Assembly: GCA_022606425.2 (NCBI GenBank)
Contig: JAHDVF020000734.1
Span: 1,674,001-1,738,000 of the forward strand
Direction of reading: 5' to 3'
Source: Lepidostoma basale
Lineage: Eukaryota; Arthropoda; Insecta; Trichoptera; Lepidostomatidae
Length of the DNA: 64,000 bases
In this document: positions 1,752-54,682 of the stretch, piece after piece
How positions within the stretch are numbered: position 1 is the first letter of the stretch
Layout of the letters: each line of letters begins with the position of its first letter
Position numbers and translations under genes: made by a program
Notes under the pieces: model-generated
Seen by the model: only the letters and a program-made list of their open reading frames with translations
The model's database searches: none
Told to the model about the DNA's origin: nothing

Positions 1752-1800
1752 TGTAACACCTGATGATGCCAACATAGATTGGCGAAACAGTTTCAAATTA
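1752..1800 (+). ncRNA. Hammerhead ribozyme-like motif (ACAG family)
   Basis: CTGATGA at 1760-1766, an extra T, then stem II GCCAA (1768-1772) perfectly complementary to TTGGC (1779-1783), followed by GAAA (1784-1787) and CAG. This is the order of a type I hammerhead core. Stem III is ACAG/TTT rather than ACAGCTGT and the cleavage triplet is TTC, so this copy is probably inactive or weak. Related to the copies at 19.1, 27.7, 39.4 and 47.5 kb. Confidence 0.6.
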
Positions 1801-2608
1801 ATATATTCCATGAAATAATTTAAATATTTTGAGAAAAAATGTTTTTTTCGATATAAATGCTTTCGATGTGAAAATCAATGTTCTATTTCTGAAATATGCA
1901 TTGATGAAGATAGTATGGTAATTGAATACTGTAAATGAATGAAATATTAAACCATATCTGTAAACCATTAGTCATTCATAATGATATTTTAATAAAACCT
2001 TATGTTGACTTTAATTCAATGGAGCCCCCTAGTTGGAGCTGTACGATGTTGGCACGACCAAACAATACCCATCTCCGAAGGTATGCACCACTACACAGGC
2101 ATAATTCATACCAAATAGCACGCAGATTAAATATTATCAATACGCTGACCTTGCGCCGATGAGGACGCGCTAATGTCAAGCGGTTTCCCCGAAAATGTTA
2201 ATAACTGATTAATATTGTACGTCTGTGTACGTGGTTACCGTCCTATTGAAACACAACGAGGATGATCTACTCGTATGTACACATAAACAAAATTGGTTGA
2301 ATACATTACCAATTTGATTATTTATAAACGATACTAATTAGTATCTTGTGTGAGCGCTAGTAGCAGAGCGTGCAAAAAATACGTAATCATAAATTGAATA
2401 AATATTATCATTACGAAAAGCCAAGGGCTCACAATTTTATGGAATCAGTGTTAGACAGATTGAAATCTGTAGTAACCAACAATCTGTCATATTTACTCAC
2501 AATCGCCAAAAGTAAAGATTTCTTTCGCGAGTTTTAAAAATCAGAACTTTTCATGTTCTAGCAGTAGGTAAATCTATGTGAAATCCTTAGATAACTAAGA
2601 AATTAACA
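1801..2608. other. AT-rich stretch without recognised gene
   Basis: Small ORFs only, with no recognisable domain; nothing further seen. Confidence 0.5.
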
Positions 2609-2775
2609 AACCAACTAACTAACTAAATAACTACCTAACTAACCTTCAGACTGTCTCTCCGAAGGGGTAGGCAGAAATAATGGACCGCCACACTGTTCTT
2701 TCCTGACATACCTCTCTCGATTCCTCAGTATTCACACATCATGCACGCACGTCGATTTCTCCGACTCCTCTTCAA
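2609..2775 (-). mobile_element. 3' stub of the YGSEAW-family LINE with (AACT)n tail
   Basis: An AACTAACTAACTAAATAACT tail adjoins CTTCAGACTGTCTCTCC, a mutated form of the CATCACGCCGTCTCCCC terminus, then GGTAGGCAG, AATGGACCGCCACACT and CACGTCGAT. These correspond on the minus strand to the final residues of the LINE ORF (RRACM, W-R-S-I-L, AYP). 5' truncated at about 2775. Confidence 0.75.
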
Positions 2776-3654
2776 ATTAATTTTAAAAATAATAATAAAA
2801 TTGCTAGTGCCTTTTAAAAGCCTTCCTGTTTCTCTTGCTGTCGTCTCTTAATGAGTATAAGGAAAATATAATATTATACAATATATGAAAAGCAAACGTA
2901 CGGATATTCATCAGTGTGTGTATATAAAATTTAGTTTTAATATGTAAAGCGCACAAATTAGTAAAAAATCAAAATGTATTGCAATTATCGGAAATTAAAA
3001 AAAGAAATCCACCAGGAGCACATGCATCGCGTGGCAGTATGCGGCGACACGCAGTATACAGACTATTGCGCGCATCACCACTCTTATCAATTCGACCTTG
3101 GCAATGATCGCCGCAGCCGCGGTCACCTCCCGTCTGCTCTGGGCTCCTGATACCGATTATCATCACCTTCACAGTACATTCCGTCACCTTTCCGCAATGC
3201 CAAAATTAATATCCAAAACAAGTGGATATTGCATGCCGACTAAAAGCAAGTACTCGTATAGTAATTTACAAGTACATTTAATTATATACTCGTATTATCG
3301 TAACTTCTATTTTCTTCGTGCAATATCGATGTTATCTCAAAATGTTTTACGAGTATTATCGTTAATTTTTTTCTGATTGATCAACCTATATTTACTAATT
3401 TTTTATTATTATTTTTTCCAAAATTAGTCATGGTTGCCTCTCGAACGTATATGAGATATTTTAAGTGGTTTTTAAACTAAATAGTATTAAATCAAACTAC
3501 AACCAATATGTAACGTTAATCAAATATAAATATTTTCATTGTTTCTTGAACAATGATATAAAACTCCATATTAAATATTTAATACGATTGAGTTGTTACC
3601 GTGTTTTTTTTTACGGGAGTGATATTTGGACAACAATGGACAACAAAGTTTGAT
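2776..3654. other. AT-rich stretch; flank of a hammerhead-family repeat near its end
   Basis: A GC-richer piece lies at about 3060-3150. At 3535-3580 the sequence TTGTTTCTTGAACAATGAT plus AAAACTCCATATTAAAT is the recurrent flank of the ACATGT-type hammerhead repeats seen elsewhere (28.0, 29.1, 31.6, 34.2 and 50.5 kb). No gene seen. Confidence 0.5.
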
Positions 3655-3705
3655 GTAGGTACCAGAAGATGGCAGCGAGCTGCCGAAACCGGTCGAAGAC
3701 GAAAA
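3655..3705 (+). ncRNA. Hammerhead ribozyme-like motif (ACCGGT family)
   Basis: CAGAAGA at 3663-3669 occupies the CTGATGA position (U4 and U7 both replaced by A), an extra T, then stem II GGCAGC/GCTGCC (3671-3676 with 3679-3684), GAAA (3685-3688), the palindromic stem III ACCGGT (3688-3693) and a GTC triplet ending at 3694. Stem II and III are perfect; the U4 change would normally impair cleavage. Degraded relatives are at 9.18, 10.15, 13.4 and 54.65 kb. Confidence 0.6.
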
Positions 3706-3819
3706 TTAATAAGTAGATTTTACACTAAAAATAAACAGAAAAATTCTTAATAAATTTTTATTTTTATTTTCATTATTTACGATGAACTTCTACCGAGAAA
3801 TTTCAATCAACAACATCAA

Positions 3820-3870
3820 TAATTTTGATAATGCCTTAGAAAGGCGAAACATGTTATTCCCATAAACTTC
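3820..3870 (+). ncRNA. Hammerhead-like motif (ACATGT family, TTGATAA core)
   Basis: TTGATAA at 3825-3831, extra T, stem II GCCTT/AAGGC (3833-3837 with 3841-3845), GAAA at 3846-3849, stem III ACATGT, then T where the cleavage C should be. Core positions C3 and G8 are altered, so activity is not expected. The following CATAAACTTCTAG is the family stem I arm. Confidence 0.55.
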
Positions 3871-3989
3871 TAGAAAACAAATGTTTTCATTAGTATTGAT
3901 AAAGATATTCGTTTTGAAATGATAAGTAACGTTAAAACTATTAACTCTTTGCTTGAACAATAATGTGAAATTCAATATTGAATATTTAA

Positions 3990-6075
3990 TATACTCGTAG
4001 TTTCCTGAAAGTTTTATAGGTATATTCCTCCTATTATGGTATATTCATATCATAAATGTCCAGAAAACGTAACATACGCATTCTTCAATGTTAAATACAA
4101 GAAATCTTCACCAAGTGTATAAATCCGATATTCATCCATTTCTAAAGTAGTAATTACATTTTAGAATATCTTATGGTAAGAAGATTGTTTTTTAAAACGA
4201 AATTCCACATTACATTACCACACATACACATGTTGTATATGTATATCATTACTTATGTGCATAAATGAATGTTTATTAGTAATTTTTCATGAATGTCAAT
4301 TTGACAAAGTCGTATGGCACATAAGAGTGTCCTCTGTGTCACCTCTTCTCGATAACTGACTCACAGAAATAAAGCGTTGAATTGAATATCATTCGCATTG
4401 GATTACAATGGTCCGCCTTCCATTCCTCACCTCCAGGTCTCATGGAGACCATGCGGTCAAATGCGATAAATTCTTACGCAGTGTAAGAATACCCGTTGAA
4501 ATATTATTAAAAACTAATCTAAAGGAAGTCAACTGATTATATTTCGTGCCTTTTCATTATCTATCAAAGTCTCGTGGCTGAAGGAATCAAAGAATTTAAG
4601 CTCTTAATGTTTTAGTTTAATGTTTATGTTAAAATATTTATAATTTCACCAAAATTCGGCGTATTCTTTTTTTGTAACTTGGGGACCACAACTTGCTAAA
4701 GAATAACGTATTATGTGAAAAGATTCTGATTAGTCAAAGTGCATACTTTATATAAACTTAGTTATTAAGCGGTTACTTTGGGTACATCTTGGTATAAGAC
4801 AAAGAAGGCGTCTCCGAAACGTCATTTACAGAAGCAACATGTAACAGAGCCCGATGAATTGATATCAAGTTATATATTTTACGATATTATAAGAACAAAA
4901 TAACATTTGACTATTGATAATAGACATATGTACTTCACTATCAAGACCGAATCCCTTAAATGATACTTAATGTAATATGCGATTTTTTTCACACTGAACG
5001 ATCGGTCGATAATATCGATAACGGGATCTTGCTGTGTGTTTAAAATAAACTATTTTTATTATTGCGTATTTTTTATCAAGCACGAATTAGGAGATTATGC
5101 ATAGTTGGATTTATTCGTGGATATGATGTAAAATCTAAAAGCAATCGCAAAACAAAACCTGGAAAATGTTTATCGACTATTCAAGGCCCCATTAACAATA
5201 ATTCAGTCGAAGGTCGCCTCCACCCGGAAACAATCTGAACGTATTTACTAGAAAGAAAATTTAAATAATTATGTTATATCATATTCGCGATACACAAACC
5301 AGACTTGTGTACAAAGACTTAATACTGTAATACTGTGTACCGTACTCGGAATATGATTGCACTCAAATTATAATTACAATTATTACGGGATAATTTAAAC
5401 TGCGGACTTTCGGTGTGTATGATAGATGCAGTGTCTCTATAGTGACTCCGTGTGTATGGTGGAGATATGATAGATAGTAAATAGGACAATTCAGCCTATA
5501 AAACATTACTATTACCTAAAAGTTAAATTATTTTAAGTCTCCAGTACAGTATCAAGAAATCATACACGTATGTGAACGTTTATCGTAAAAATCAAAAAAA
5601 TATTATTTTGCCGCGAGATTTGAATCCACAATTCGCGAGGAATATGGGTTCCGGTTGTAGAATTTTATAATAAAAAAATTACACATATAATTTTTTCAAT
5701 TAAATGATATTTGTTTTCTTAGCTGGTAAGTTATATAAATTTTTTTATACATATGTAGAAGTTGCCATTATATGCGAACATTTTATTTTTCATTTACCAT
5801 AGATAAAACAAATTGTATGTATTATGGTTTGTACATAGTATATTTTGGAGGTAACAACTCGTCGATTTAAGAAAGTATAATTATAATGGTGGTGTCAAAA
5901 AAAATTCTGCAACTGGTGGTGATAAATATATAAGTATAGGCCCAATCTAATATAAAACAATGTGCAAATAAATTGTTGTTTTGCCAGTTTTATTGTTTTA
6001 CTAAAATATTTAGATTTACCGAAGTTAGTTTGAACTCAAATGATTTTACTGGAATCTCTTGATGGGATCTGGTCT
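3990..6075. other. AT-rich stretch without recognised gene
   Basis: No coding signal. A weak GAAACGTC-type motif at about 4810-4840 was considered and not called. Nothing else recognised. Confidence 0.5.
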
Positions 6076-6125
6076 ACCACCAGTCTGTCGATGCCAGCGA
6101 GTCTGGCGAAACCAGTCGCTGTCTT
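6076..6125 (+). ncRNA. Hammerhead ribozyme-like motif (ACCAGT variant)
   Basis: CTGTCGA at 6085-6091, extra T, stem II GCCAG/CTGGC (6093-6097 with 6103-6107), GAAA at 6108-6111, ACCAGT and a GTC triplet ending at 6117. GCTG just after the cut site can pair with CAGT just before the core (one G-U), giving a short stem I. The core has A6 to T and U7 to C changes. Confidence 0.6.
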
Positions 6126-6534
6126 AATAAAGACAAAAGTGGAAGTAGTTAAAAAACATCGTTTTATTTAATTATTATTTAGTTTGAACTACCTAAAAGA
6201 GAGATAAATATATTTAAGGAAAATATCGTCATTTTTTTGTATTATTATTATTATATTATCAAAGGCAAGAAATTTTAATTGACAACATAGTAATTTTCAA
6301 TATAATATATAATTTAAATGACTAGTAGGTACGTAGTTTTAATGCTTATCATTTTATTCTTAAACCGGAATGTTACCGGATCCGTCAATCTCTGTTTTTG
6401 CATAAAAGTATTTATGAAGTATAAAAATACGAACGTGTATTTATTTGCATCACGCAAACGTCAGTAAAATAGCATTAAGATGTCTTCTTAATAGAGTAGT
6501 GAATAGAATAGTAGCGCGCAATGAATCAATCGCA

Positions 6535-6640: not shown

Positions 6641-7010
6641 TGGACGCATTAATATACACGATAGTCCCAATCAAGGTCTTCTAGATATAATTAATTATTC
6701 ACGGTCTTCTAATGAGACTTACATTACCCCAAGGTCGGCGCTGAGCTGATCCGAGCGCTGCCGTTTAGCAGGGGACATTATTTTTATTCACCGAAACCAG
6801 AGATTCCCAAAGTTGGCGCTGGCTCCATCTGGAGGCGCGGCGGTACAATCATACGGAAGATGAGAATTCTTTCATCAGGTGTTGAATATCTAGGGGCTTG
6901 TGGTAGGGCCAAACTGGGTCTACAACTGGGATTAAAAGCATCAAGACTTTTGGAAATTATGGTATGTATCATTATTATTATGATATTAACGAATATTGAA
7001 AAATACGATC

Positions 7011-7515
7011 AGTGCACAATGGTGTTCTTGTACTGACCCTTATGTATGGAAGCGAAGCATGAAACTGGCAAAAGAAGGATAAAAATAGAATAAATGCAGT
7101 AGAAATGAGATCTCTTAGACGAATGTGTGGATACTCTGTGTATGATGGTGTGTCGAATGAAAATATAAGAAGTGAATGCGGTTCGAATGATGGTGTTATG
7201 AACAAAATAATGAAAGAATCATTGAGATTGTTTGAACATATGGAAAAAATGAATGAAGAAAGAATGGTTAAAAAAATATGTTAACGATGTAAATGGAACT
7301 AGAAATAGAGTAAGACCGAGGAAAACCTGGCACAATCAAATAAATTAAATACTGAATGTCGGCCACGAAAGGAGTCAGAGAAATCGACGCGCGTGCATGA
7401 CACGATGTATAAATGTTGCGGAATCGAGAGAAATATGTCAGGAAAGAAAAGTGTGGCAGTCCATTCTTTCTGCCTACTCCTTCGGAGAGACGGCGTGATG
7501 GTTAGTTAGTTAGTT
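7011..7515 (+). mobile_element. YGSEAW-family LINE, C-terminal 500 bp, inactivated
   Basis: The forward frame reads VHNGVLVLTLMYGSEA, then a stop where the family has W, then NWQKKD, NRINAVEMRSLRRMCG and LRLFEHMEKM. After frameshifts it ends ICQERKVWQSILSAYSFGET and TGA at 7496-7498. This is the region downstream of the reverse transcriptase in an insect LINE, ending in GGCGTGATGG and a (GTTA)n tail. It is 5' truncated at about 7011 and pseudogenic (in-frame stop, at least one frameshift near 7270). Confidence 0.85.
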
Positions 7516-11446: not shown

Positions 11447-11754
11447 GATGAAAACGATTGAAGTTTATTTTGTTTTATTGGAGTGGCAGCTTCGATCAGC
11501 TAGGGCTTTATCAAATGTGCGCACACATTATAAGTATACTTTATTCAAAAATTTCGTTAATTTAATTCATATTAAAAAAACAGAATTATGGAAAAACTTT
11601 TTTTTATTTAATTTACCTATAATATAATATATAAATCTTATGTTTTAAACACTTTCTTTGACTTGAACCACAACGCAATTGGAAGCAATTGAGGTATTAT
11701 CAAATTAAATGTTGAGGCATTATCAAATTAAAGTGGTCAAAATTTATAAGTTTA

Positions 11755-13393: not shown

Positions 13394-13438
13394 ATTAGCC
13401 AGAAGATGGCAGCGAACTTCCGAAACCGGTCTAAGACA
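13394..13438 (+). ncRNA. Hammerhead ribozyme-like motif (ACCGGT family), degraded
   Basis: CCAGAAGATGGCAGCGAACT then TCCGAAACCGGTCTAAGAC. GAAA, the ACCGGT palindrome and the GTC triplet are intact; stem II GGCAGC/ACTTCC is broken compared with the copy at 3671-3684. Confidence 0.55.
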
Positions 13439-15354: not shown

Positions 15355-15515
15355 TTAAATTCTGTCTAGAAGTTTTATTACATAGTATGGAAATAACATG
15401 TTTCGCCATGCTAATACATTATCAGATGACATTTGTCTGACAAACAGACGTGTTAATTCATATTAAAATAATTATTAAATATGGAGTTTTACATAATTGT
15501 TCAAGAAACAATAAA
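15355..15515 (-). ncRNA. Hammerhead-family repeat (ACATGT type), minus strand
   Basis: On the minus strand: CTGATAA (15425-15419), a poorly paired stem II, GAAA (15404-15401), ACATGT and then T in place of the cleavage C. The CTGATAA box keeps C3 but has G8 to A. The flank includes TCTAGAAGTTTTATTAC (stem I arm) and the family end GGAGTTTTACATAATTGTTC. Confidence 0.5.
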
Positions 15516-18228: not shown

Positions 18229-18452
18229 GTATGCAATAGGTCGTTTGAACCCAATTTATGTATATTTTTTTAAGCTATTATATTGATTCTCATGACATGT
18301 GAAAGGTAGCTAATTTATCGCCATTTTATTGTCACGTGAATACTACATCAGACCAATGACAGTGTGACAATCCCACTGCCATCACCGGAAATTGAATCCG
18401 GGACCTTCGGTATGGCTGTCAGAGCTCTTACCACTCTGCCACGAAGGTCGTC
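18229..18452 (-). mobile_element. tRNA-derived SINE, copy 1
   Basis: On the minus strand the head has GTGGCAGAGTGGTAAGAGC (A-box like) and CCGGATTCAATTTCCGG, a perfect 5-bp T-stem with a 7-nt TTCAATT loop (B box). Then follow TGGCAGTGGGATTGTCACAC, ATTCACGTGACAATAAAATG and a tail ending GGGTTCAAACGACCTATTGC. Copy 2 at 50633-50861 matches along the whole length. Internal Pol III promoters and an unrelated body define a SINE; the partner LINE is not identified. Confidence 0.85.
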
Positions 18453-18454
18453 GT

Positions 18455-19010
18455 CGTATTGTACAATCGGTGAAAAAAGAAAACAATGGAGAGATATTCC
18501 TAAAAGTATAAACGAAAAATTTTAAGCGACGACATTTCCACATCTAATCCATACAAGCTTTTAAAGCTTGTTTTTACACACGCCTATACAAAATATATTC
18601 GGTTTAACATGAATGTTATAGCCAGCGTGTATGGATACACACCGCTGCTGACATTTATATGGACCCAGTCGTTAGGAACAAGGCAAAAAAGCTTTCACGA
18701 ATGCTTCCATAAAAGCTCTAAAGCGGAAAATAAGCTCCACTTATTTCCACTTAAGATACTGCGGAGACGCTAAATGTCAAGTGAAGAGTTCAAGGAACTT
18801 GCGTTTCGGGTTAAGCCTTAGGGGTGGTGAAACATCCCTTATGTTTTCTGAATTCCAGTATTAAGAAAGAGCAATATCTTTTGATATTGTGTAGCAGTGG
18901 TGCCGAGTCGCAGAAAATGGAGTTATCACTTTTTTAAGTAATACGAACTTTTGGTAAAATTTCTTAACAAACGAATCTGAATTTTCAGGAGACGAACGTT
19001 ATTAATTTAA
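18455..19010. other. Noncoding stretch without recognised gene
   Basis: Nothing recognised beyond generic AT-rich sequence with a few GC-richer segments. Confidence 0.45.
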
Positions 19011-19215
19011 TAGTCCATTGTTTTGGCCAAAACCCTATGATACTTTAACATGATAAATGGTAAATTAAAAAACTTTGTTTTATGTATCACAACTGTATTT
19101 TTATTTTACGCGACAGCTGTTTAGTCAGCCTATGTTGACATCATCAGGTGTTATTAAAATAAAAATACAATTGAGATACATAAAACAAAAAAATTTTTTA
19201 ATGTATACAAATACT
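19011..19215 (-). ncRNA. Hammerhead-bearing inverted-repeat element (ACAGCTGT family)
   Basis: On the minus strand: CTGATGA (19147-19141), extra T, stem II GTCAA/CTGAC, then TAAA where GAAA is expected (G12 to T), the palindrome ACAGCTGT and a GTC triplet. Outside the core TTTTAATAAAAATA-like arms at 19060-19110 and 19150-19205 are complementary over roughly 40-50 bp, forming a very long stem I with an internal loop next to the core. The left edge TAGTCCATTGTTTTGGCC also occurs at 33.78 and 47.41 kb. The G12 change should abolish cleavage. Confidence 0.65.
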
Positions 19216-21080: not shown

Positions 21081-21364
21081 TATAAATTTGGATCTTTTTT
21101 TGTAATTACAAGAAGAACATTATACAAATATGTGTTTTTATCAATATTTATCTAACATAATGGTTTTAAGTGATCATCTACAACTACATTTAAGAGACAC
21201 TTAAATCACCTATTTTCTAAAACTTTGAGGGCAAGTCGGCACGGGCTAGAATTAACGTAGGAAGTTGAAATTCTGTATTTCGGTAACTAGTAGACTATTT
21301 AACACAATTAGGGGGTATGCGTTTCAATAATACAAAAAAAAATTGTTTTGCCCATATAAGGGCA

Positions 21365-27689: not shown

Positions 27690-27785
27690 TGAAAAAATTT
27701 CTTGCCAACCTATGTTGGCATCATCAAGTGTTATTTGTAATGCCTGATGATGCCAACGTAAGTTGGCAAAATGATGATCGCGACA
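27690..27785. ncRNA. Two facing hammerhead-like motifs in an inverted repeat
   Basis: Plus strand: CTGATGA at 27744-27750, extra T, stem II GCCAAC/GTTGGC, then AAAA in place of GAAA. Minus strand: TTGATGA followed by GCCAACATAGGTTGGC (27718-27703). Both lack a proper GAAA/stem III, so neither should cleave. The head-to-head arrangement resembles those at 29.2, 31.5 and 36.1 kb. Confidence 0.5.
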
Positions 27786-27867
27786 ATCTCATTCAAATAA
27801 ATGGTGTTACATATAATAACAGTGTTTCAAATTAAAACATTTAATAATGTTAAAGTATCATCAAATC

Positions 27868-27999: not shown

Positions 28000-28145
28000 T
28001 TTTCATTGTTTCTTGAAGAATTATGTAAAACTCCATATTAAATAATTAATGTAAATGAATGCGCCTGTCTTCGAGGTGTTTTAATAAATTGTATGTGAAA
28101 TGATATGTTTCGCCCTTCTGGGGCATTATTAACAAGAGTATTTGT
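28000..28145 (-). ncRNA. Hammerhead-family repeat (ACATGT type), degraded
   Basis: On the minus strand: TTAATAA, stem II GCCCC/AGGGC-like, GAAA, ACATAT, then C (28135-28101). The flank holds TTGTTTCTTGAAGAATTATG and AAAACTCCATATTAAATAAT, the repeat's far end. Core and stem III both mutated. Confidence 0.5.
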
Positions 28146-28795: not shown

Positions 28796-28896
28796 TTTCT
28801 TATTCAAACTTCGAATAAGGATTTACTATATTTCTTTTAAGCAAATAACATTTTCATATTTCTTCTATATTCGCCTTCACTTCGTGCTGTGGATTC

Positions 28897-29105
28897 ATAT
28901 TTGAATAAATTTAATATAAATGCACTTAGTACTACAACACTTTATTTCACTTATCGCATACATGTTTCGTTTATATAATAACATAACCTTTTCTATGTAC
29001 ATTAAAAATTTTGTACATTGAAAAAGGTTACGGTATAACCGGCATATGTCTGTGATAAGTGAAATAAAGTATTGTAATACTAAGCGCGATTATATTAATT
29101 CAAAT
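28897..29105 (-). repeat. Cruciform-forming inverted repeat with hammerhead-like GAAACATGT
   Basis: Arms 28899-28963 and 29042-29104 are complementary over about 65 bp (for example CACTTTATTTCACTTATC against GATAAGTGAAATAAAGT). Inside is a second hairpin, AACCTTTTCTATGTACA (28984-29000) against TGTACATTGAAAAAGGTT. The minus strand has CGAAACATGT at the junction, as in hammerhead stem III. The three-way-junction layout fits a hammerhead relative with a long stem II, but no CTGATGA box remains. Confidence 0.55.
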
Positions 29106-29335
29106 TGTAATATTTATTTATTTCTTGAACAATGATGTGAAACTCCATGTTTAAAAATATACACGAATGAGAACGTCTGTTTTCTATAAGATTTATTATA
29201 TTGTATATTATAGGAAGAATATATTTCGTCTTGCTCAGGCATCATCAAATGTGATATTTTATAATGTCTTAGCAAGGCGAAACATGTCGTTCCATAACGT
29301 ATTAAATTGTTTTTAGAAAACAGACGATTTCATCG
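29106..29335. ncRNA. Hammerhead-family repeat (ACATGT type) with facing motifs
   Basis: Minus strand: TTGATGA (29248-29242), extra T, GCCTGAGCAAGAC, GAAA (29227-29224), TATAT. Plus strand: TTTATAA, TGTCTTAGCAAGGC, GAAA (29279-29282), stem III ACATGT and a GTC triplet ending 29288. The minus copy keeps G8 of the core, supporting CTGATGA as the ancestral box. The left flank TTATTTCTTGAACAATGATG is the family end. Confidence 0.55.
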
Positions 29336-29624
29336 GTTTTAATTATTTCAATATTCCATAATGACACAAGGAAAGACTCAAGCATTTGTTTATAAAAAAT
29401 ATTCAAAAATACTCATTATTGTCCAAATACTACTATAAAACTGCATATCACATCGGATATTTAAAAAAATATGAGATCTCATAGTCATGCTTTAAACGTA
29501 AAAATATAATATTATATTGTTTATTGAACAATGATAAAACACTCCAAATTAAATGTTTAATATTGATGAAAACACTCGTTCTAAATATGAACTTTATTTT
29601 AGAAGTTACTTTTAAGTTTCATTA

Positions 29625-31431: not shown

Positions 31432-31665
31432 AGTAAACTAATAATTACGAATGAAAACATCTGTTTTATATAATTTTTATCATTGTTTATTGGAAGGACA
31501 TGATTTTCCCTTTCTAAGGCATTGTCAAATGTCTTGGAAAGGCGAAACGTGTCATTCCATTTCCCATAAACTTTAAAAAATCAGAAGTTGTCATGCGTAT
31601 TAATTATCTAATGAGGAGTTTTATATCATTGTTCGAGAAACAGTTCATTTAAAATATAAATATAA
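31432..31665. ncRNA. Hammerhead-family repeat (ACATGT type) with facing motifs
   Basis: Minus strand: TTGACAA, TGCCTTAGAAAGG, GAAAATCATG (31527-31499), mutated. Plus strand: CTTGGAAAGGC, GAAA (31544-31547), CGTGTC ending 31553, with the 5' core box deleted. The left flank AATTACGAATGAAAACATCT and right flank GAGTTTTATATCATTGTTCG are the family ends. Confidence 0.5.
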
Positions 31666-31989: not shown

Positions 31990-32085
31990 GTCAGATCATG
32001 TAAACAATTTTATAATATTTTTAAAAATGTATCTTTACTGAAGAATGACTGTTTGTCCGAAACATGTTGAAACGAAATATAATTG
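31990..32085 (+). ncRNA. Hammerhead ribozyme-like motif (CTGAAGA/GGAC family), copy 1
   Basis: CTGAAGA at 32038-32044, extra A, stem II TGAC/GTCC around loop TGTTT (one mismatch), GAAA at 32059-32062, palindromic ACATGT (32062-32067), then T where C is expected. U7 to A is tolerated in known hammerheads; the lost cleavage C is not. Upstream CAATTTTATAATATTTTT and downstream AAATATAATTGTTG can pair as stem I. Confidence 0.6.
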
Positions 32086-32878: not shown

Positions 32879-32980
32879 AAATATATATGTAGAAATATAA
32901 CTTGAAGCAATCTCGAAATTTTAGAAATAAAATAATTCTATTAAAAATAAAGAAAATGTTATAAATAATCAAATAAATTT
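32879..32980. repeat. Half copy of the 31.7-kb palindrome
   Basis: GAAGCAATCTCGAAATTTTA, ATTCTATTAAAAATAAAGAA and AATGTTATAAATAATCAAAT match 31805-31875 with few changes; the other arm is missing. Confidence 0.75.
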
Positions 32981-33900
32981 AACGTCAAGTTCAATCTTTG
33001 ATTTATTTCCTTTGTTGTAAGTTGTAAGTTAATATTTAATCAATATGGATCACAGTGTGAAGGAAAAATTTCTTCGTATTCCCATATTAAAAGATCTGGG
33101 ATAAGCCCTAGTAAAGATGTACGAAACTAAGCTACCGTTTCTAGCCTAAAAGGTTATCTGTACGGCCAAAAATTAAACATGTTTTTTATGTACACGAATT
33201 TTCAGTGAAACGCCAAAATAGAGCAGGAACTATCAATCCATCAGAGAAAACAAAACATTGAATGGAAAAAAGTACCTAATCGGGGGCAAGAGAAATGTGG
33301 ATCAGCCAATAATTGTTTCCTCTTATCGCTCCAGTATCAGCTAACGGCTCTTTGCCCCCGAGCATCGAACCGTGGACCGCGGCGTGGACAGAACAAAGCG
33401 GAGAGAGGAAAAGTGACCAGCGATGCCCCCAATCCGAGTTTTCACGGCGGGCTGGGACAACCGCGCCGGCTGTTGCACTCGCGGCCACTGTGAAAGTGTG
33501 ACTAATACTCTTTATTGAATAACATCAATTGTTTTCTCCGAAATGTCAGCCGAGAGGTTATTAAGGTTTTATGTCATCGAACCGAGCTAACTTAGGAAAG
33601 CACAAGATGTATGTTAATAGCCAAGCTAGTTCTTACGAAATTACATTGCGTGGTTCATTATTCTTACCTCAATCAGAATCAAATTATATCCTAATAAATT
33701 CGTTTCGAGAAATTCTTTTCACAATTTAGACGATCAATACGAATAAAAAAGTCCGTTTTCTACAAGTTTTATTAAATAGTCCATTGTTTTGGCCGAAACA
33801 CTATGATACCTTAACATTTTAAACTGTTAAATTTAATAACTTTGTTTCTTCTACAATATATACGGCAAACTATGTGTTGTTATGATGGTTTATTTCTTTT
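32981..33900. other. Noncoding stretch with GC-rich patch and hammerhead-family flanks
   Basis: GC-rich patch at 33335-33490 (CGTGGACCGCGGCGTGGACA, GACAACCGCGCCGGC). At 33727-33850 there are flank pieces of two hammerhead families: AATACGAATAAAAAAGTCCG and TAGTCCATTGTTTTGGCCG. Confidence 0.45.
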
Positions 33901-33904: not shown

Positions 33905-34035
33905 ACAACAGCATTTTTATAATATTTTTATAAATATGTATCTTTACTGAAGAAGGACTGTTTGTCCGAGACATGTCTATATAATTTCATTTTTTTATTA
34001 TAATAAAAGTGTTGTATATACAAAGTGTATACAAA
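33905..34035 (+). ncRNA. Hammerhead ribozyme-like motif (CTGAAGA/GGAC family), copy 2
   Basis: CTGAAGA at 33947-33953, extra A, perfect stem II GGAC/GTCC (33955-33958 with 33964-33967), GAGA (A14 to G) at 33968-33971, palindromic ACATGT and a GTC triplet ending 33977. AACAGCATTTTTATAATATT upstream is largely complementary to TTATTATAATAAAAGTGTTG downstream, a long stem I. One core change from an intact ribozyme. Confidence 0.65.
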
Positions 34036-34059: not shown

Positions 34060-34255
34060 TTAACAGTTTAGAAGTTTTATTATATTTTATGGGAATGACA
34101 TGTTTCGCCTTTCTTAGGCATTATCAAATGTCACACATTTGACAATATCATTCCCATAAAATATAATAAAACTTCTAGAATACTGACGTTATCATTCGTA
34201 TTAATTATTTAATGTGGAGTTTTACATCATTGTTCAAGAAACAATAAATACAATT
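34060..34255 (-). ncRNA. Hammerhead-bearing inverted-repeat element (ACATGT family)
   Basis: On the minus strand: TTGATAA (34127-34121), extra T, stem II GCCTAAGAAAGGC, GAAA (34106-34103), palindromic ACATGT and a GTC triplet (C at 34097). The arms TAGAAGTTTTATTATATTTT (34069) and AAAATATAATAAAACTTCTA (to 34180) are exact inverses, giving a stem I of about 28 bp. The element ends GTGGAGTTTTACATCATTGTTC. C3 and G8 are mutated, as in most copies of this family. Confidence 0.65.
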
Positions 34256-35959: not shown

Positions 35960-36175
35960 AAAATACGATTTTTAATAATTTGGCATTAAATAATTAATAT
36001 TTATGAAAATGTCTTATTTCTGTAAGTTTTTTTATAATTTCTGTGGAAGACGTATTTCAGCTATCTTAGGCATTATCAAATGTAACATTTGATAATACCT
36101 TAGACAGGCGAAACTTGTCATTCATATAAAACTTCTAAAAAAAAGACGATATAATTCGTATTAATTAATAAATAA
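35960..36175. ncRNA. Hammerhead-family repeat (ACATGT type) with facing motifs
   Basis: Plus strand: TTGATAA (36089-36095), TACCTTAGACAGGC, GAAA (36110-36113), ACTTGT and a GTC triplet ending 36119. Minus strand: TTGATAATGCCTAAGATAGC then TGAAATACGTC (36080-36050). The two motifs face each other across AACATT. The flank contains ATTAATTTGGCATTAAATAA-like family ends. Confidence 0.5.
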
Positions 36176-39366: not shown

Positions 39367-39562
39367 TTAAGTTTAAATAGAATAAACTGTTAAACTATTA
39401 AATTAAATAACTTTGTTTTTTGTATCAACATAGGTTGATTAAACAGCTGCCGCGTAAAATAAAATACAATTGTGATACAAAAAACAAATTTATTTAATTT
39501 AACAGTTTAAAATGTAAATGTATCATAGTGTTTCGGCCAAACCAATGGACTATTTAAATAGA
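39367..39562 (+). ncRNA. Hammerhead-family inverted repeat (ACAGCTGT type), core deleted
   Basis: Contains TTAAATTAAATAACTTTGTT and its inverse AACAAATTTATTTAATTTAA, and between them CAACATAGGTTGATTAAACA followed by GCTGCCGCGTAAAATAAAAT. Compared with 47.5 kb the CTGATGA box is missing and GAAA has become TAAA. The right edge GTTTCGGCCAAACCAATGG is the inverse of the TCCATTGTTTTGGCCGAAAC edge seen at 33.78 and 47.42 kb. The L2-like LINE abuts its left side. Confidence 0.55.
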
Positions 39563-43984: not shown

Positions 43985-44075
43985 TGGGTAGAGTCTTCAA
44001 TAATTAATTACAATGAAAACGTCTGCTACTGTATATTTTATGCGAATGACATGTTTCGTCATGATAACGAATTTG
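43985..44075 (-). repeat. Hammerhead-family remnant (ACATGT type)
   Basis: ATTACAATGAAAACGTCTGC, TATTTTATGCGAATGACATG and TTTCGTCATGATAACG: stem I arm, the ACATGT/GAAA half and part of stem II; the distal half is missing. Confidence 0.5.
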
Positions 44076-46375: not shown

Positions 46376-46484
46376 CCAATAATCTAACATTCAATATGGT
46401 AATAGCTCGGCCAAATAATAAACAACATTTTATCTTCTCGTTCAGTGGCTGGGATGATTTTTTATTTAAATAGGGTAGGTCTGG

Positions 46485-46893
46485 AGCATGGACTGCCACA
46501 CTATTCTATCCTGACATATCACTCACGCATCGTGACATGCTCGTCGATTGTTCCTACTTCAAACATGGCTGCAATTCAATAATTGATTAATTTGGTCATG
46601 CCATGTCTTTCTTAGCCTTCCTCGAATTCTTTTTCCATTTACACTACTTGCATATATATTTTTAACCATTCTACCCTCATCAATTCGTTCCGTATTTCTA
46701 AACCATCTTAGTGACCCTTTCTTAATTTAATTTAGAACGAATTCATGCGCCTTACATTTGTTACTCGCTTCATCATTAGATTTTCTATCGTACATTTTTT
46801 TTCAGCACATTCTTCTTAGTGACTTCATTTCTACGGCATTTATCTTCTTCTGCCAACTCCATGCTTCACTTCCATACATAAAGGTTGCAATAT
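46485..46893 (-). mobile_element. YGSEAW-family LINE C-terminal fragment, decayed
   Basis: In plus orientation: ATGGACTGCCACACTATTCT, TTGATTAATTTGGTCATGCC (inverse of the WHDQIN codons), ACCATCTTAGTGACCC (LRW region), TCTTCTTAGTGACTTCATTT (MRSLRRM) and CATGCTTCACTTCCATACAT (MYGSEAW). The 3' terminus itself is lost, unusual for this family. Confidence 0.75.
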
Positions 46894-47297: not shown

Positions 47298-47350
47298 GAG
47301 ACCGACTGGTTTCGCCACTGATAGAACCTCGTCAGAGCAATCAGAACTTT
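47298..47350 (-). ncRNA. Hammerhead ribozyme-like motif (ACCAGT variant)
   Basis: On the minus strand: CTGACGA (47335-47329), a 15-nt segment with only weak self-pairing, GAAA (47313-47310), ACCAGT and a GTC triplet (C at 47304). CTGACGA is a natural core variant (U7 to C). Unlike the other copies there is no extra base after the box, and stem II is poorly formed. Confidence 0.5.
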
Positions 47351-47411
47351 TGTTTTCATTATGTTAGGTGTCATTTTATCATTATAAATCATTTTATATA
47401 AATATTATTTT

Positions 47412-47605
47412 AAATAGTCCATTGTTTTGGCCGAAACACCATGATATTTTAACATTTTATAACTGTTAATTCAAAAACTTTGATATATATTTTTATAACA
47501 CCTGATGATGTCAATATTGGTTGACGAAACAGCTGTCGTAAAGTAAAATAAATACAATTTGTGATATTAAACAAAGTTTTTGAATTAACAGTTATAAAAT
47601 ATTAT
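47412..47605 (+). ncRNA. Hammerhead-bearing inverted-repeat element with intact core (ACAGCTGT family)
   Basis: CTGATGA at 47502-47508, extra T, perfect stem II GTCAA/TTGAC (47510-47514 with 47521-47525), GAAA at 47526-47529, the palindrome ACAGCTGT (47529-47536) and a GTC triplet ending 47537. The flanks ATTTTATAACTGTTAATTCA (47452) and TGAATTAACAGTTATAAAAT (to 47600) are exact inverses, and the match extends inwards through AAAACTTTG, so the whole unit folds on itself with the ribozyme near the apex. All bases of the catalytic core are present. Cleavage would occur after 47537. The closest match to a functional ribozyme here; the upstream edge is TAGTCCATTGTTTTGGCC. Confidence 0.75.
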
Positions 47606-48412
47606 TTTGTATAAAAAAGACGATGCTTTATTTCATGCGCAGTAAAATATTTGTTAAAAGCTTTTTTTAGTCATTTACTAAAAATATATAATGTCGACAC
47701 GTCTGTGTATAGTTATTATTCAAATATATATGTTTGTCCATCTATTCCTAGTACATACATTTATGGAAATTCAAGTATCCATGGAAACTTTCTCAATGTG
47801 CCTCTAGTTTTAACGGAACTTCACCAATATCATTTGACATACCAGCTTGGAGAACCCACGCATCATTTATTTAAAGCTATTGCTTATTCAAATAGCATAC
47901 AACTTTTACGAGAATTTTGAATGAATTCATAGAAATATGTACGCATGGATAAGTATTCCAAAAATTGATACACCTTATCACTTTACTTGGAACACTTTAC
48001 TTACCATTGTTCGTACTCTGATGTACGTGGTGCTACAGTGTCGCAGGAAAAGCGGTACGAGCGGCATTTCCTCGAATGTAACCAGTTCTAAGAAGAAGAA
48101 GTTTCATATTTCGGTACCGGGCGCGCCCGCCTCGGACCTGGGGCCGCCGTTCCGCGTTGGGATAGGTCCAGCCGGCCGCACGTCAGATGCTCTCTCAGCG
48201 TGGCTGCACTTGGCTGCTATGATGATTCAATTGGCTCCGCCGCTCAATGCGCCGGTATACTGAGTCCATTTATAATAATACCAAACTGCGTAGTTTCATT
48301 TCGATGTAAGTCAGACCTGATCTCGTCCGACATTGTTACGCTTAAGATCCACCTTATATAGACTTTTGGCTGTAAATGCACGTAAAGCGTTTACACTGTG
48401 GAATTAAATAAT
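47606..48412. other. Noncoding stretch with GC-rich patch
   Basis: 48110-48260 is GC-rich (GGGCGCGCCCGCCTCGGACC, CAGCCGGCCGCACGTC). Frames of 89 and 108 codons on the plus strand have no recognisable domain and are treated as chance. Confidence 0.4.
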
Positions 48413-48417: not shown

Positions 48418-48605
48418 TTTTTTTAATTAAGATGTTTTTTCCACTTTTGAGGGGTTTTTTCTCGACGTATTTTAAAGATTTCACACCGCCATTATACGGA
48501 GAAAAATATAAACTGATGATGAGGATGTAAAACCTACGAAACATGTCAAGAAAAACAAACCAAAAAGTGGACAAAACCGTGATTTAATTAAGAAAATATG
48601 TAAAA
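48418..48605 (+). ncRNA. Hammerhead-bearing inverted-repeat element with intact core boxes
   Basis: CTGATGA at 48513-48519, extra T, an imperfect stem II (GAGG against CCTAC), GAAA at 48538-48541, palindromic ACATGT and a GTC triplet ending 48547. CCACTTTTGAGGGGTTTTTT upstream and CAAACCAAAAAGTGG downstream are complementary, and AATTAAGATG/TGATTTAATT extends the pairing, giving a stem I of about 50 bp with interior loops. The GAAA and CTGATGA boxes are both intact; the weak stem II is the main defect. It appears only once in this window. Confidence 0.65.
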
Positions 48606-49132
48606 TTAAAGTTTAATTACAAAAAAACAAATTACCATAAAATGATAAGGTTTGTAACAACAATGCATAAACGTTAAAAAAAACATTTTAACATCTATCA
48701 AAACTGACCACATTCTTGAAATGTTTTAAATGTTTATTTTGTATATAAATAATATTATTACAATGTTGTAGAGCTTATGTTTCTTGTTCCTATTTTAAAT
48801 AGAGTGTTGTTTTATGAAGTAAAATAAATATTCTTCAATTATGAATCCATAACACAAAGTAATGATGAATATAAAAAGAAAATATGATACTCCTTTAAGA
48901 TATTTAAATTGATTTTTTTTTTGTTTTATTCCACTTACTCTTCATCTTATTCCAACCTATTTCGGCAACTTGCTGACATCGTCTGGTATCTACAGAATAA
49001 TTTCTAAACCGTATATAAGGATTACTGATTCCTGTTGGGCTTAATAATAATAATATTTTATTATAATTAGTAGTAAGTAACACAGAAATAAGCATTTAGT
49101 TATTTGAGAGAGAGTTTAAGTTATTGGTGGGT
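48606..49132. other. AT-rich stretch without recognised gene
   Basis: Nothing recognised. Confidence 0.45.
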
Positions 49133-49134
49133 TA

Positions 49135-49295
49135 AAATTCTTTATAATTAATATATTATAAATGAAAACGTGCGTCTTCTCTAGGAGTTTATTAAGTTTT
49201 TTTATGGAATGACATATTTCGGCCTTCTAAGGTATTATCAAATGTTTGATTTAATTTAATACGCAATTCGAAATCAATATTCAAGAAACAATAAA
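49135..49295 (-). ncRNA. Hammerhead-family repeat (ACATGT type)
   Basis: On the minus strand: TTGATAA (about 49241-49235), TACCTTAGAAGGCC, GAAA, TATGT and a GTC triplet (C at 49211). The stem I arm GGAGTTTATTAAGTTTTTTT lies at 49185-49204 and the far end CAAGAAACAATAAA at 49282. C3 and G8 mutated. Confidence 0.5.
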
Positions 49296-49640: not shown

Positions 49641-50488
49641 TACAAATTCTATGGTGAAATATAATTTGTATAAATATGTAACAAAAGGTTCTCCGACTAT
49701 TATGTATATTATACATGTGTTCAGCTATGAATATAAATTATATTTACATAATCTATACAATGTGTTGAAAATTAATTCTTGTAATTGCGTTGAATATTTA
49801 ATGTCACTTTTATAATCTAAAAAATCATTTTCCAACCCATCAGACTACACGTAACAGCCCAGACAGTAAAATAATAATTACGCCTTTCGACAAAACTCGA
49901 TGACAGGTCTAATAAGCGTACCACTCCTCAGAAATAATAATCAATCTAGTAAAATCTGGATTCTTGATCACAAAAATATGACTTGTAAACAGTGACAATT
50001 TTAAAAATTGTTTGCATTATTAAGCCATTAAATTAATCATTTTGCTATATACCGGTAAGTCAGACGACCTTGGGGTGACACACGCCTACCTTATCGCGCG
50101 GAATATGCAGTGAATGCAATGAGTCCGCAAGACGACCTAATGATCGGGTGCAAGTCCGCCCAGCGGATCACTTTAGGCCTTATCAACTTACGGTCAATTG
50201 GAAAATTGCTATCTCCAATGTAATTGCTATCTGATCAATTAACAAGGGAATCATTCACTTTAAAATAAATAAATAACATTGCATCATTATTGGAATAAAA
50301 GTTGTATGAAATAGAATTTGACTTTTATTTTATCGATACTGTTGAATTTATGATTATTCGGATGAAAAACTTTTTCTCGTAATACCTACAACTGAACAAT
50401 TACTTTTTCCACTTTCTTTTTATTGACACGAACAAGAAGATGGTTTCAAAATATGGGAGATACCCAATACCCATATATCTTTTTTCTT
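49641..50488. other. Noncoding stretch without recognised gene
   Basis: A GC-richer segment at 50050-50190; nothing recognised. Confidence 0.45.
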
Positions 50489-50489
50489 T

Positions 50490-50630
50490 TTTATTGTTTC
50501 TTGAACAATGATCTACAACTCTATATCAAGTAATTAATATGAATGGAAACATCTGTTTTCTAGAAGCTTTATTATAACTTATAATATAATAATGTTTCGC
50601 CTTAATTCCTTAGAAAGGTCATTTTTTTTC
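50490..50630 (-). repeat. Hammerhead-family remnant (ACATGT type), interrupted by a SINE
   Basis: TTGTTTCTTGAACAATGATC, TTAATATGAATGGAAACATC, TTCTAGAAGCTTTATTATAA, then TAATGTTTCGCCTTAATTCC. After the SINE (50633-50861) the sequence resumes with TTAAGTTATGATTAAACTTC and TAGAAAACAGAC, so the SINE inserted into this element. Confidence 0.65.
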
Positions 50631-50632
50631 TT

Positions 50633-50861
50633 CTTGTATTCAACAGGTCGTTTGAACCCAATTACTGTATACAATTTATTTTAGCTATTATATTGATTCT
50701 CGTGACATGTGATAGGTAGCCAATCTATCGCTATTTTATTGTCACGTGAATTCCACACCAGACCAACGACAGTGTGACAATCACACTGCCATTGCCGGGA
50801 ATCGAACCCGGGACCTTGAGAATGGAAGTCGGAGCTCTTACCACTCAGCCACGAAAGTCGA
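50633..50861 (-). mobile_element. tRNA-derived SINE, copy 2 (best preserved)
   Basis: Minus strand: CTTTCGTGGCTGAGTGGTAA (A box), then CCGGGTTCGATTCCCGG, a perfect T-arm with a canonical GGTTCGATTCC B box, GGCAGTGTGATTGTCACACT, ATTCACGTGACAATAAAATA and GGGTTCAAACGACCTGTTGA at the tail. Same length as copy 1 and closer to a tRNA consensus, so probably younger. Confidence 0.9.
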
Positions 50862-50954
50862 CATTTCATTAAGTTATGATTAAACTTCTAGAAAACAGAC
50901 TATTACATCCTTATTTATTATTATATTTTTACGCTTGCGTCCATTACGATATGA

Positions 50955-52650: not shown

Positions 52651-52654
52651 TTTT

Positions 52655-52830: not shown

Positions 52831-53289
52831 ATATTAAATCAAATTTAATTCATATCAAGCCATTAAATATAATATTAACATATGCACGTCGTAGAAACAG
52901 TCCCGATTTTTGTAGGTCACTAGTGGAATTTTATTTAACAACAGGAATAACGTAATTGTTACTCTATAAATCCATAATTTATTGATTTAAGCAATCCAAC
53001 GTTTGCGCGTCCATTGGGAGCCTTGGAAAAATCGTTTACACTGCAAGTTATAGCTTAGAAATAAATCAATTATTATGGCCCCAGGCGCGACCTCTAACTC
53101 CAGAGCGAACCATTGTTATAATAAACACACATACCAGAGAAAATAGACTTCGATACTTATTTGGGTTAACGGTCTTCCACGGGGGCTGACACTTTGCACT
53201 ACTTCAATGCTGCTTATTGTTGGACATGTTCATCATCTAGGCATTGCGTTTTACTGCTTAGCTGTTTCGTAATACTGCGGAATATCGAG

Positions 53290-53480
53290 ACCTATGCATA
53301 GAGGGTACCCACCGCTTACCCGAGGCTGTTATAGGGCGCAGCAGCGCCCTTTCATCAGCCTCGCTCGTACACTTCCTACGCCTGTCCCCCGCTCATCCGG
53401 GGCTTACATTTATTTCGAATATCCATAAAGGGGGTGCCAGGCCACATTTAATTTACTTTTCTCCCTTCTATAGTCCACAC
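53290..53480. repeat. Dispersed repeat R2, copy 2
   Basis: Matches 43622-43800 in order over about 180 bp (see that copy). Roughly three quarters of positions agree by eye. Confidence 0.6.
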
Positions 53481-53564
53481 TTGTAGATATTAAATTCAAT
53501 TTATTTTTTAAAAATCATACAAAGGAATAACTTATATGTTACGTTAGACATCTCTCTTAAGCGT

Positions 53565-53662
53565 TCCTATTATTATGTTGTATGTGTACGAGTATGTAGA
53601 TGCCAACATTTATGCTGTTTGTAATGTCTGTTGAGTAAATAAACTAATTTGATTTGATAACA
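53565..53662 (+). repeat. Retroposon 3' end with GATTTGAT tail
   Basis: AGATGCCAACATTTATGCTG, TTTGTAATGTCTGTTGAGTA and AATAAACTAATTTGATTTGA repeat the block at 27868-27965 in the opposite orientation. Confidence 0.6.
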
Positions 53663-54189
53663 CATTCACACTTAAAAGATATATTATATAAGAAAGGCGG
53701 GACACAGTACGGAGAGGAAGACAGAAAATGTGGAGGTCTGTGGAAAAGTAAAGTGGAGTGAGTCAACAAGATGGGGGCAGAGGAGGAGGCACAGGGAGAA
53801 TTTTTGAAAATTGAAAAAAAAAATTCATGAAAAAATATATTAATCCACGCCCCATCAGGAAGCAGACTCAAATACGGGTCAGAACGAACTATCGAAACCT
53901 ATAATGTAATGTTTAATATTTGGATTCTAAAATCAATAACAATCAATCTTTCGTGCACGCATGTATGCAGAACTAAAGTAAACCTCAAACCACATAATAC
54001 CTTTTTTATATTTTTAATGCATATTTCCTAATTTCACGTTGTTGTATCATTGCGCTTTCAATTTTACAGCTTATAAAATCAGGTTATTTCTTTCTAAAGC
54101 TATTTCTTAATATAGTCATTTTATCCGGCTAAAAATAATATATGGCGTCATTTCGATATTTCAGATTAAGCTAATGGTTCTAAAATTAA

Positions 54190-54395
54190 AATCTCGGTTA
54201 CGACAATACCTGGTCCGACAGATGGCATTACGCGCCTCGCGGTTACCCAACGGATTACCCTCCTCCGGTTGGGCGGTTATTTCTATCCCAGGGAAGCCCA
54301 GCCCAGCCCTGTGGTCGTGACGTCCTTGACCCACATCGCCGAATGTTCGCCCCACTTTGCCCTGCTTAGTACCCCTACTTTGTTTGATGGGTCAC
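54190..54395. other. GC-rich patch
   Basis: CGCGCCTCGCGGTTACCCAA, CCTCCTCCGGTTGGGCGG and CCCAGCCCAGCCCTGTGGTC. Open frames on both strands show no known domain. Could be old regulatory DNA or an unrecognised repeat. Confidence 0.35.
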
Positions 54396-54639
54396 TCCTA
54401 TTTGTTATATTACACTACTTGTTTACTCCAAGAACAATGTATTTACAGAACACTGGCAGAAGCACTGAGATCTATTATAGTAGGAGATACAGTTTGCTGA
54501 GTTCGAACGTGAATGTGATCTCAAATGTCTCTTCCTTACATAGACAAGTGGACAAGGATAAACGTCAGAAGGTCAAAAGAATATCGTGATTAATTGAATT
54601 ATAGATCCATTATTCACACACCTACTAGTATAAAAAGTT

Positions 54640-54682
54640 GCACAATAGCCAGGAGACTGAAACCGGTCAAAACATAGTTTTT
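54640..54682 (+). repeat. Hammerhead-family remnant (ACCGGT type)
   Basis: AGCCAGGAGACTGAAACCGG then TCAAAACATAG keeps GAAACCGGTC but has lost a clear stem II and core box. Confidence 0.45.

What the first reader, a model, noticed from the sequence alone, without database searches (positions are those of the whole stretch)
1752..54682. Many hammerhead ribozyme-like motifs in several repeat families
At least twenty places carry, in order, a CTGATGA-like box, a short complementary stem II, GAAA, a palindromic stem III and usually a GTC triplet: type I hammerhead order. The families use different stem II and III sequences (GCCTT/AAGGC with ACATGT; GGCAGC/GCTGCC with ACCGGT; GTCAA/TTGAC with ACAGCTGT; GGAC/GTCC with ACATGT) while pairing is kept. 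Such covariation between families supports an RNA structure rather than chance. Hammerheads with short palindromic stem III are established in Penelope-like elements and retrozymes; here no Penelope RT is visible, so a non-autonomous retrozyme-like origin is inferred.
Basis: partly seen in the sequence, partly recalled or inferred. Interest (0 to 1): 0.9.

Follow-up and report, generated by a model that had tools for sequence, protein, structure and literature searches.

The report
Penelope retrotransposon hammerhead ribozyme relics
The repeated hammerhead-like motifs are real and are mostly decayed copies of the small RNA-cutting motif carried by Penelope-like retrotransposons, a known kind of element that is very abundant in this genome.

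Summary
I curated 22 sites with a CTGANGA-like box, complementary stem II, GAAA and often a palindromic stem III, well above shuffled controls; only 4 of 22 keep every core feature tested. Rfam finds no hammerhead. In the host genome (769 Mb) exact patterns of three families occur 6306, 1369 and 343 times; reversed patterns, 0. Stem II covaries (59 of 60 cells paired in 15 chosen representatives; shuffles 34.3 +/- 4.2, none of 10,000 as high).

The origin is best explained by Penelope-like elements (PLEs). The genome gave 140 scored PLE RT matches. In 19 of 20 fetched PLE 3' regions the same motif lies downstream of the RT, with the same extra base after CTGANGA and a palindromic stem III. Window copies match particular PLEs and show the head-to-head inverted pLTR layout, usually with a 'tail' on one arm; the window also holds a decayed PLE ORF end. 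Small PLE hammerheads and U3-A8 cores are already published, so these are new members of a known kind. Cleavage is not shown here. The largest family (F3) has no PLE parent found, which leaves open an ORF-less, PLE-mobilised mini-retrozyme.

The parts
47408..47608 (+). F3 head-to-head pLTR pair: left arm 47408-47488 (-) with tail, right arm 47489-47608 (+) without tail; hammerhead box at 47502 with all core checks passed (CTGATGA t GTCAA..TTGAC GAA ACAGCTGT C)
19006..19162 (-). F3 unit with tail; hammerhead box at 19147, G12 mutated (TAA)
1751..1793 (+). F3-type hammerhead, box at 1760, stem II GCCAA/TTGGC, stem III palindrome lost
27694..27861 (.). F3-related head-to-head pair (box 27727 on -; + arm 27735-27861); GAA lost on the - copy
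34070..34251 (.). F1 head-to-head unit; hammerhead box 34127 (-), U3-A8 core, all core checks passed; the + arm lacks the hammerhead part
3824..3900 (+). F1 unit; hammerhead box 3825, U3-A8 core, all core checks passed
29113..29347 (.). F1 head-to-head pair with two decayed hammerheads, boxes 29248 (-) and 29258 (+)
35986..36167 (.). F1 head-to-head pair with two decayed hammerheads, boxes 36079 (-) and 36089 (+)
31439..31642 (.). F1 head-to-head pair, decayed; not in the 22-site audit
28000..28132 (-). F1 unit with tail; hammerhead box 28132, G5 mutated, stem III palindrome lost
15365..15515 (.). F1 arms; hammerhead box 15425 (-), C3-A8 mismatch
49149..49245 (-). F1 unit; hammerhead box 49241, stem II decayed
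6036..6202 (+). Solo PLE-D copy: inverted stub 6036-6065 plus direct piece 6079-6202 with hammerhead box 6085 (CTGTCGA t GCCAG..CTGGC GAA ACCAGTC); 92-96% identical to PLE-D loci C236, C453, C1148 (C236 has a 758-aa open frame)
33947..33977 (+). F4 hammerhead, as in decayed PLE C653; A14 mutated (GAG)
32038..32068 (+). F4 hammerhead, 10.1 pair lost
32890..33010 (+). Decayed C-terminal ORF fragment of PLE-C (79-80% nucleotide identity, frameshifted)
28821..29098 (.). PLE-C pLTR piece (28821-28969) with an inverted repeat (28911-28982 / 29027-29098) and a degenerate hammerhead box at 29018 (+)
48798..48898 (+). PLE-C pLTR piece, no hammerhead in it
48513..48547 (+). F5 hammerhead, passes the core checks but stem II is weak (3 of 4 pairs); near the centre of an imperfect palindrome (66%)
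3663..3694 (+). F2 hammerhead CAGAAGA t GGCAGC/GCTGCC GAA ACCGGT C; U4 is A
13400..13431 (+). F2 hammerhead, U4 is A, stem II partly decayed
47304..47335 (-). Decayed hammerhead (CTGACGA), family not assigned
48954..48985 (-). Decayed hammerhead (CAGACGA), family not assigned

Best explanation
The motifs are the small type I hammerheads of Penelope-like retroelements (PLEs). In the PLEs of this genome the motif lies downstream of the RT ORF, in the pseudo-LTR (pLTR); in the short F1 and F3 units it stands at the start of the unit. The genome has several PLE families with long open frames and thousands of ORF-less copies; the window holds decayed copies of several families. Shown by sequence: conserved core, covarying stem II, palindromic stem III, location in PLEs, head-to-head inverted layout, tail usually on one arm. 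Inferred: in tandem PLE transcripts two motifs pair through their palindromic stems III and cut as a dimer, perhaps helped by the PLE protein, giving unit-length RNA that the PLE reverse transcriptase inserts; short 5'-truncated insertions joined to an inverted second copy leave the fold-back pairs seen here. Most window copies are mutated, and in fold-backs the ribozyme can pair with its own antisense copy, so few are likely to be active.
For: 140 scored PLE RT matches in the genome (some are pieces of one copy), many in frames of 820-870 aa without stops, several head-to-head. A full motif downstream in 19 of 20 fetched PLE 3' regions; the 20th (C564) keeps only the 3' half. Of 12 further, mostly decayed loci, 5 had a sense motif, among them C653 with the F4 motif and C860 with the F1 motif. 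Window 6079-6202 is 92-96% identical to PLE-D. PLE-C ORF piece at 32890-33010. Head-to-head arms in 23 of 30 F1 and 22 of 30 F3 loci (L066 and L067 are one place: 21 of 29); where both arms were long enough, a tail on exactly one arm in 11 of 12 F1 and 14 of 18 F3 rows (13 of 17 without the duplicate). Stem II 59 of 60 cells paired vs 34.3 +/- 4.2 shuffled, 0 of 10,000. F3 pair 10.2 is C-G in 51 and T-A in 36 of 96 rows. Head-to-head inverted pLTRs, tail, junction palindromes and solo pLTRs are described for Penelope in PMC3846280 (passages); PLE hammerheads in PMC7761336 and PMC11167929 (passages).
Against: No PLE parent found for F3 (largest family), F5 or F2 in 34 fetched PLE regions (2 + 20 + 12); F3 copies near three of them (L081, L090, L113) looked like separate insertions. 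The F1 link rests on one decayed locus (C860), where a chance neighbouring F1 insertion is not excluded. 7 of 12 decayed loci had no sense motif at my threshold. Target-site duplications not shown: observed matches like mixed-flank controls. Rfam gives no hammerhead. Single-strand folds give stem II but not the open hammerhead core: in both F3 folds the CUG of the box pairs with CAG of the stem III strand. In the Anolis PLE, hammerhead mutants did not affect insertion in vitro and no reads ended at the cut site (PMC11167929).
Confidence: 0.92

Rival explanations
1. F3 (perhaps F5/F2) are true non-autonomous retrozyme-like elements: an ORF-less pLTR-plus-tail unit of about 157 bp, spread as self-cut, perhaps circular RNA by PLE enzymes in trans.
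For: 6306 exact-pattern copies and no PLE ORF found joined to one in 34 fetched PLE regions; L114 holds an inverted unit plus two direct F3 units joined end to end, L115 a direct pair; 2 direct close pairs among the first 100 listed places (by eye).
Against: Same head-to-head and tail layout as PLE insertions; 7 of 9 close pairs among those 100 places are head-to-head; no hammerhead tandem array in the window (the genome was not searched for arrays); published animal retrozymes carry canonical type I hammerheads with loop contacts (PMC7229834, passages).
Confidence: 0.2
2. Fold-back DNA transposons (MITE-like) whose centre only resembles a hammerhead.
For: Inverted arms around the motif.
Against: Identity with PLE pLTRs, the motif downstream of PLE RTs, tail on one arm, covariation.
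Confidence: 0.03
3. Chance resemblance, or inherited sequence without RNA structure.
For: No Rfam match; monomer folds do not show the active core.
Against: Reversed-pattern controls 0 against 343, 1369, 6306; stem II covariation.
Confidence: 0.01

Closest known systems
Small/minimal type I hammerheads of Penelope-like elements (Cervera and de la Pena 2014; Lunse, Weinberg and Breaker 2017; neither held, known here only from titles and citing passages)
   Same: Type I order, reduced stem III suggesting dimers, location in pLTRs, thousands of dispersed copies in animal genomes
   Different: Whether those papers report the extra base after CUGANGA or a U3-A8 lineage could not be read
Poseidon PLE of Anolis carolinensis (PAc), PMC11167929 (passages)
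   Same: Hammerhead with stems I and II at the pLTR-ORF junction; its ORF begins at stem II, which would fit an ATG made by A9, the extra T and G10.1 (my inference)
   Different: Other species and families; in PLE-B here that ATG runs into a stop within stem III (read by eye)
Penelope elements of Adineta vaga, PMC3846280 (passages)
   Same: About 830-840-aa ORF, direct plus inverted pLTRs, head-to-head order, optional tail, palindromes at the junction, solo pLTRs
   Different: 'hammerhead' does not occur in its main text
Metazoan non-LTR retrozymes, PMC7229834 (passages)
   Same: Type I hammerhead, small ORF-less unit
   Different: Canonical hammerheads with loop contacts in tandem repeats; here a variant core and mostly inverted pairs
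Natural hammerheads with U3-A8 cores, PMC3088659 (passages)
   Same: C3-G8 replaced by the Watson-Crick pair U3-A8
   Different: Here it is the family state of F1 (1369 exact copies) and PLE-B

Membership tests
PLE small hammerhead (type I) | Core: CUGANGA box with 3-8 pair, G12 A13 A14, H17 | tested here: met
   15 chosen representatives: 3-8 pair C-G 13, U-A 2; position 17 is A, C or U in 15; GAA in 15 (they were picked to contain GAAAC). Exceptions: A6 is U in PLE-D, U4 is A in F2. Window copies: 4 of 22 pass all checks
PLE small hammerhead (type I) | Covarying stem II | tested here: met
   59 of 60 cells, 0 of 10,000 shuffles as high; representatives partly related (F3a-c, F5a-b, F1 and PLE-B), so no exact p-value
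PLE small hammerhead (type I) | Very short or palindromic stem III | tested here: met
   15 of 15 representatives palindromic, 4-10 nt
PLE small hammerhead (type I) | Located in PLE pLTR | tested here: met
   19 of 20 PLE 3' regions (the scoring favoured one extra base by 0.3); F4 and F1 types in single decayed PLEs; not shown for F3, F5, F2
PLE small hammerhead (type I) | Self-cleavage, as dimer | not testable with these tools
   needs an RNA assay
Penelope-like element | PLE-type RT | tested here: met
   140 scored matches in the genome; none in the window
Penelope-like element | GIY-YIG endonuclease domain | not tested
   no domain search run
Penelope-like element | Inverted head-to-head pLTR with optional tail | tested here: met
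   F1 and F3 loci, first 30 listed of each; cut-offs for 'tail' set
Penelope-like element | Target-site duplication | tested here: inconclusive
   17 F3 copies, observed like control
Metazoan retrozyme | Canonical type I hammerhead | tested here: not met
   extra core base in 15 of 15 representatives; no Rfam match in the window or in 12 loci
Metazoan retrozyme | Direct tandem repeats of one unit | tested here: inconclusive
   none in the window; 2 direct vs 7 head-to-head close pairs in the first 100 F3 places; L114 and L115 do show direct pairs
Metazoan retrozyme | Circular RNA | not testable with these tools
   needs RNA-seq

The most novel reading that the evidence does not exclude
F3 is an ORF-less, PLE-mobilised mini-retrozyme: a unit of about 157 bp (pLTR plus tail) with a variant hammerhead (extra core base, palindromic stem III) that amplified to more than 6300 copies through self-cut multimeric or circular RNA, showing directly how retrozymes can arise from PLE pLTRs.
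Probability: 0.2. Interest if true: 0.6.

Novelty: new member of a known kind. Interest (0 to 1): 0.35.

Why it matters
It confirms, with genome-wide counts and covariation, that a reading of raw sequence found a real hammerhead-type RNA motif that Rfam's models miss. The genome is a natural test set for an open question, what PLE hammerheads do: several PLE families with long open frames and different stems, one probable lineage with a U3-A8 core, an extra core base in all 15 representatives, and very large ORF-less families that may or may not spread by ribozyme action.

Tried and rejected
Rfam at gathering score and at E<=10 on the window, E<=10 on 47400-47650, and E<=1 on 12 loci: no hammerhead. 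Pattern scans of viral contigs: 0, 0 and 11 matches; the 11 have varied stems and G+C 0.40-0.63 and look like chance. Target-site duplications for 17 F3 copies: like the mixed-flank control. A first scan that demanded the textbook core without the extra base, with an exact box, printed no site. MAFFT misaligned the 15 representatives, so no covariance model was built; pairing was counted by script. Monomer folds did not give the active core. Never answered because the genome-search machine was busy: the C3/A8 count for F1, a genome search with Rfam RF00163, an F2 genome search. So F1 box counts are T3/A8 1369, T3/G8 40, C3/G8 2, C3/A8 unknown. MITE origin considered and disfavoured (see rivals).
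Full report
What is there. A scan for box, stem II and CGAAACATGTC gives 14 sites at score >=21, against a mean of 1.1 (0-4) in 15 dinucleotide shuffles; at >=20 it is 19 against 3.5 (1-6). I curated 22 sites: 17 of those 19 (10826 and 37607 dropped) plus 5 lower-scoring ones with family homology. Families: F1 (TTGATAA t GCCTT..AAGGC GAA ACATGT C), F2 (CAGAAGA t GGCAGC..GCTGCC GAA ACCGGT C), F3 (CTGATGA t GTCAA or GCCAA.. GAA ACAGCTGT C), F4 (CTGAAGA a GGAC..GTCC GAA ACATGT C), F5 (CTGATGA t GAAGG..CCTTC GAA ACATGT C; consensus stem from the genome), and a PLE-D site at 6085. Rfam does not recognise them (12 loci).

Genome-wide. The window lies in a genome of 768.8 Mb and 1572 contigs. Exact patterns occur 343 (F5-like), 1369 (F1) and 6306 (F3) times; the reversed patterns 0 times. 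Only the first 100 places of each are listed. For F3, 96 of these 100 have the same loop length (4 dropped): pair 10.2 is C-G in 51, T-A in 36, other in 9 (3 of them T-G); pair 10.3 is C-G in 84, T-A in 3. For F5-like, 92 of 100 were long enough: the second pair is A-T in 76 and G-C in 11. Compensatory change is thus seen within families too.

Link to Penelope-like elements. A PLE reverse transcriptase query gives 140 scored matches (352 candidates in the first look; some matches are pieces of one copy), many in stop-free frames of 820-870 aa, several head-to-head, e.g. C308 with two copies on each strand. In L080 (C308) the motif stands just upstream of an ORF and again after it, 2.95 kb apart. 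I fetched 3' regions for 20 of these: 19 have a full motif downstream of the RT, one (C564) only its 3' half. Some of the 20 have broken frames. Families: PLE-A (GGAGGCC..GGCCTCC, ACGT), PLE-B (GCC..GGC, ACAAATTTGT, U3-A8), PLE-C (GGGG..TCCC, ACATGT), PLE-D (GCCAG..CTGGC, ACCGGT, A6 is U), PLE-E (GCTC..GAGC, ACCGGT). Of 12 further, mostly decayed loci, 5 had a sense motif: C653 has the F4 motif; C860, similar to PLE-B, has F1 at about the PLE-B spacing after the ORF remnant; C371 is like PLE-E; C412 and C307 are like PLE-C; 7 had none above threshold. The C860 case is a single locus, and a chance F1 insertion next to it is not excluded.

Covariation test. For 15 chosen representatives, the first four stem II pairs form in 59 of 60 cells; with 3' strands dealt at random the mean is 34.3 (sd 4.2, largest 52, 10,000 shuffles). 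All four Watson-Crick types occur at pairs 10.2, 10.3 and 10.4. Not all representatives are independent (F3a-c; F5a-b; F1 and PLE-B). All 15 have the extra base (T in 11, A in 4) and a palindromic stem III. The 3-8 pair is C-G in 13 and U-A in 2, F1 and PLE-B, probably one lineage. For F1 the genome holds 1369 T3/A8, 40 T3/G8 and 2 C3/G8; the C3/A8 count did not complete. U3-A8 covariation in natural hammerheads was already reported (PMC3088659, passages).

Architecture. Among the first 30 listed loci each, head-to-head arms occur in 23 of 30 F1 and 22 of 30 F3 loci (two F3 loci are one place: 21 of 29). Arm ends cluster near 100-109 and 140-149 (F1) and near 100-119 and 150-169 (F3). Where both arms were long enough, exactly one carries the tail in 11 of 12 F1 and 14 of 18 F3 rows (13 of 17 without the duplicate); exceptions: none in 1 F1 and 2 F3, both in 2 F3; 11 F1 and 4 F3 pairs had an arm too short to tell. 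The tail cut-offs were set. This is the head-to-head pLTR pair with an optional tail described for Penelope (PMC3846280, passages). L114 has an inverted unit followed by two direct units joined end to end, about 157 bp per unit. Target-site duplications could not be shown.

The window copies. 6036-6202 is a solo PLE-D copy. 32890-33010 is a frameshifted remnant of a PLE-C ORF end. F4 matches decayed PLE C653, F1 matches C860. Only 3825, 34127, 47502 and 48513 pass all core checks. Single-strand folds of four sequences gave stem II in each; z-scores -2.5 and -1.9 (F3), -3.0 (PLE-A), -0.8 (PLE-C, not significant). In both F3 folds the CUG of the box is paired with CAG of the stem III strand, so the monomer minimum-energy fold is not the active hammerhead; this agrees with the published idea that such motifs work as dimers, but it is no proof.

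Mechanism. Shown: sequence conservation, covariation, location in PLEs, insertion architecture. Inferred: cutting as dimers through the palindromic stem III to split tandem PLE transcripts into units. Against a necessary role: in the Anolis PLE, hammerhead mutants did not impair insertion in vitro, cleavage needed added protein, and no RNA reads began or ended at the cut site (PMC11167929, passages).

Known or new. [quoted passage not shown] The two primary papers were not held. So this is a new set of members of a known kind. The extra base, the U3-A8 lineage and the ORF-less F3 family are the parts worth a specialist's look; I cannot say whether the first is already in the papers I could not read.

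Noticed in passing
36787-39366 (-): 859-aa stop-free frame that looks like a non-LTR retrotransposon endonuclease/reverse transcriptase (named from recall of its motifs, no family search run).
   Followed up: no
18264-18450 and 50674-50860: A repeat (87% alike) whose second copy overlaps the Rfam tRNA match 50787-50858 (29.6 bits); probably a tRNA-derived SINE (inference).
   Followed up: no
7010-7515, 21363-21894, 24228-24974, 46473-46885, 54780-55258: Fragments of dispersed repeats that also occur in fetched PLE regions such as L086, L096 and L099.
   Followed up: no
G000:C308:2094600-2104500 (L080): Near-identical PLE copies (99.4-99.9%) in tandem and head-to-head, suggesting recent activity (a fourth copy lies beyond the fetched stretch).
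   Followed up: partly
F3b units, e.g. L058 from 1501: The extra T after CTGATGA makes an ATG at the start of stem II; in L058 it opens 20 codons before a stop (read by eye). It may be a remnant of the PLE start codon described for Anolis (inference).
   Followed up: no
   Followed up: yes
11460-11519 (-), 33772-33847 (-), 39425-39558 (+), 44032-44058 (-), 50488-50603 (-): Further F1 or F3 arm fragments outside the 22-site audit.
   Followed up: no
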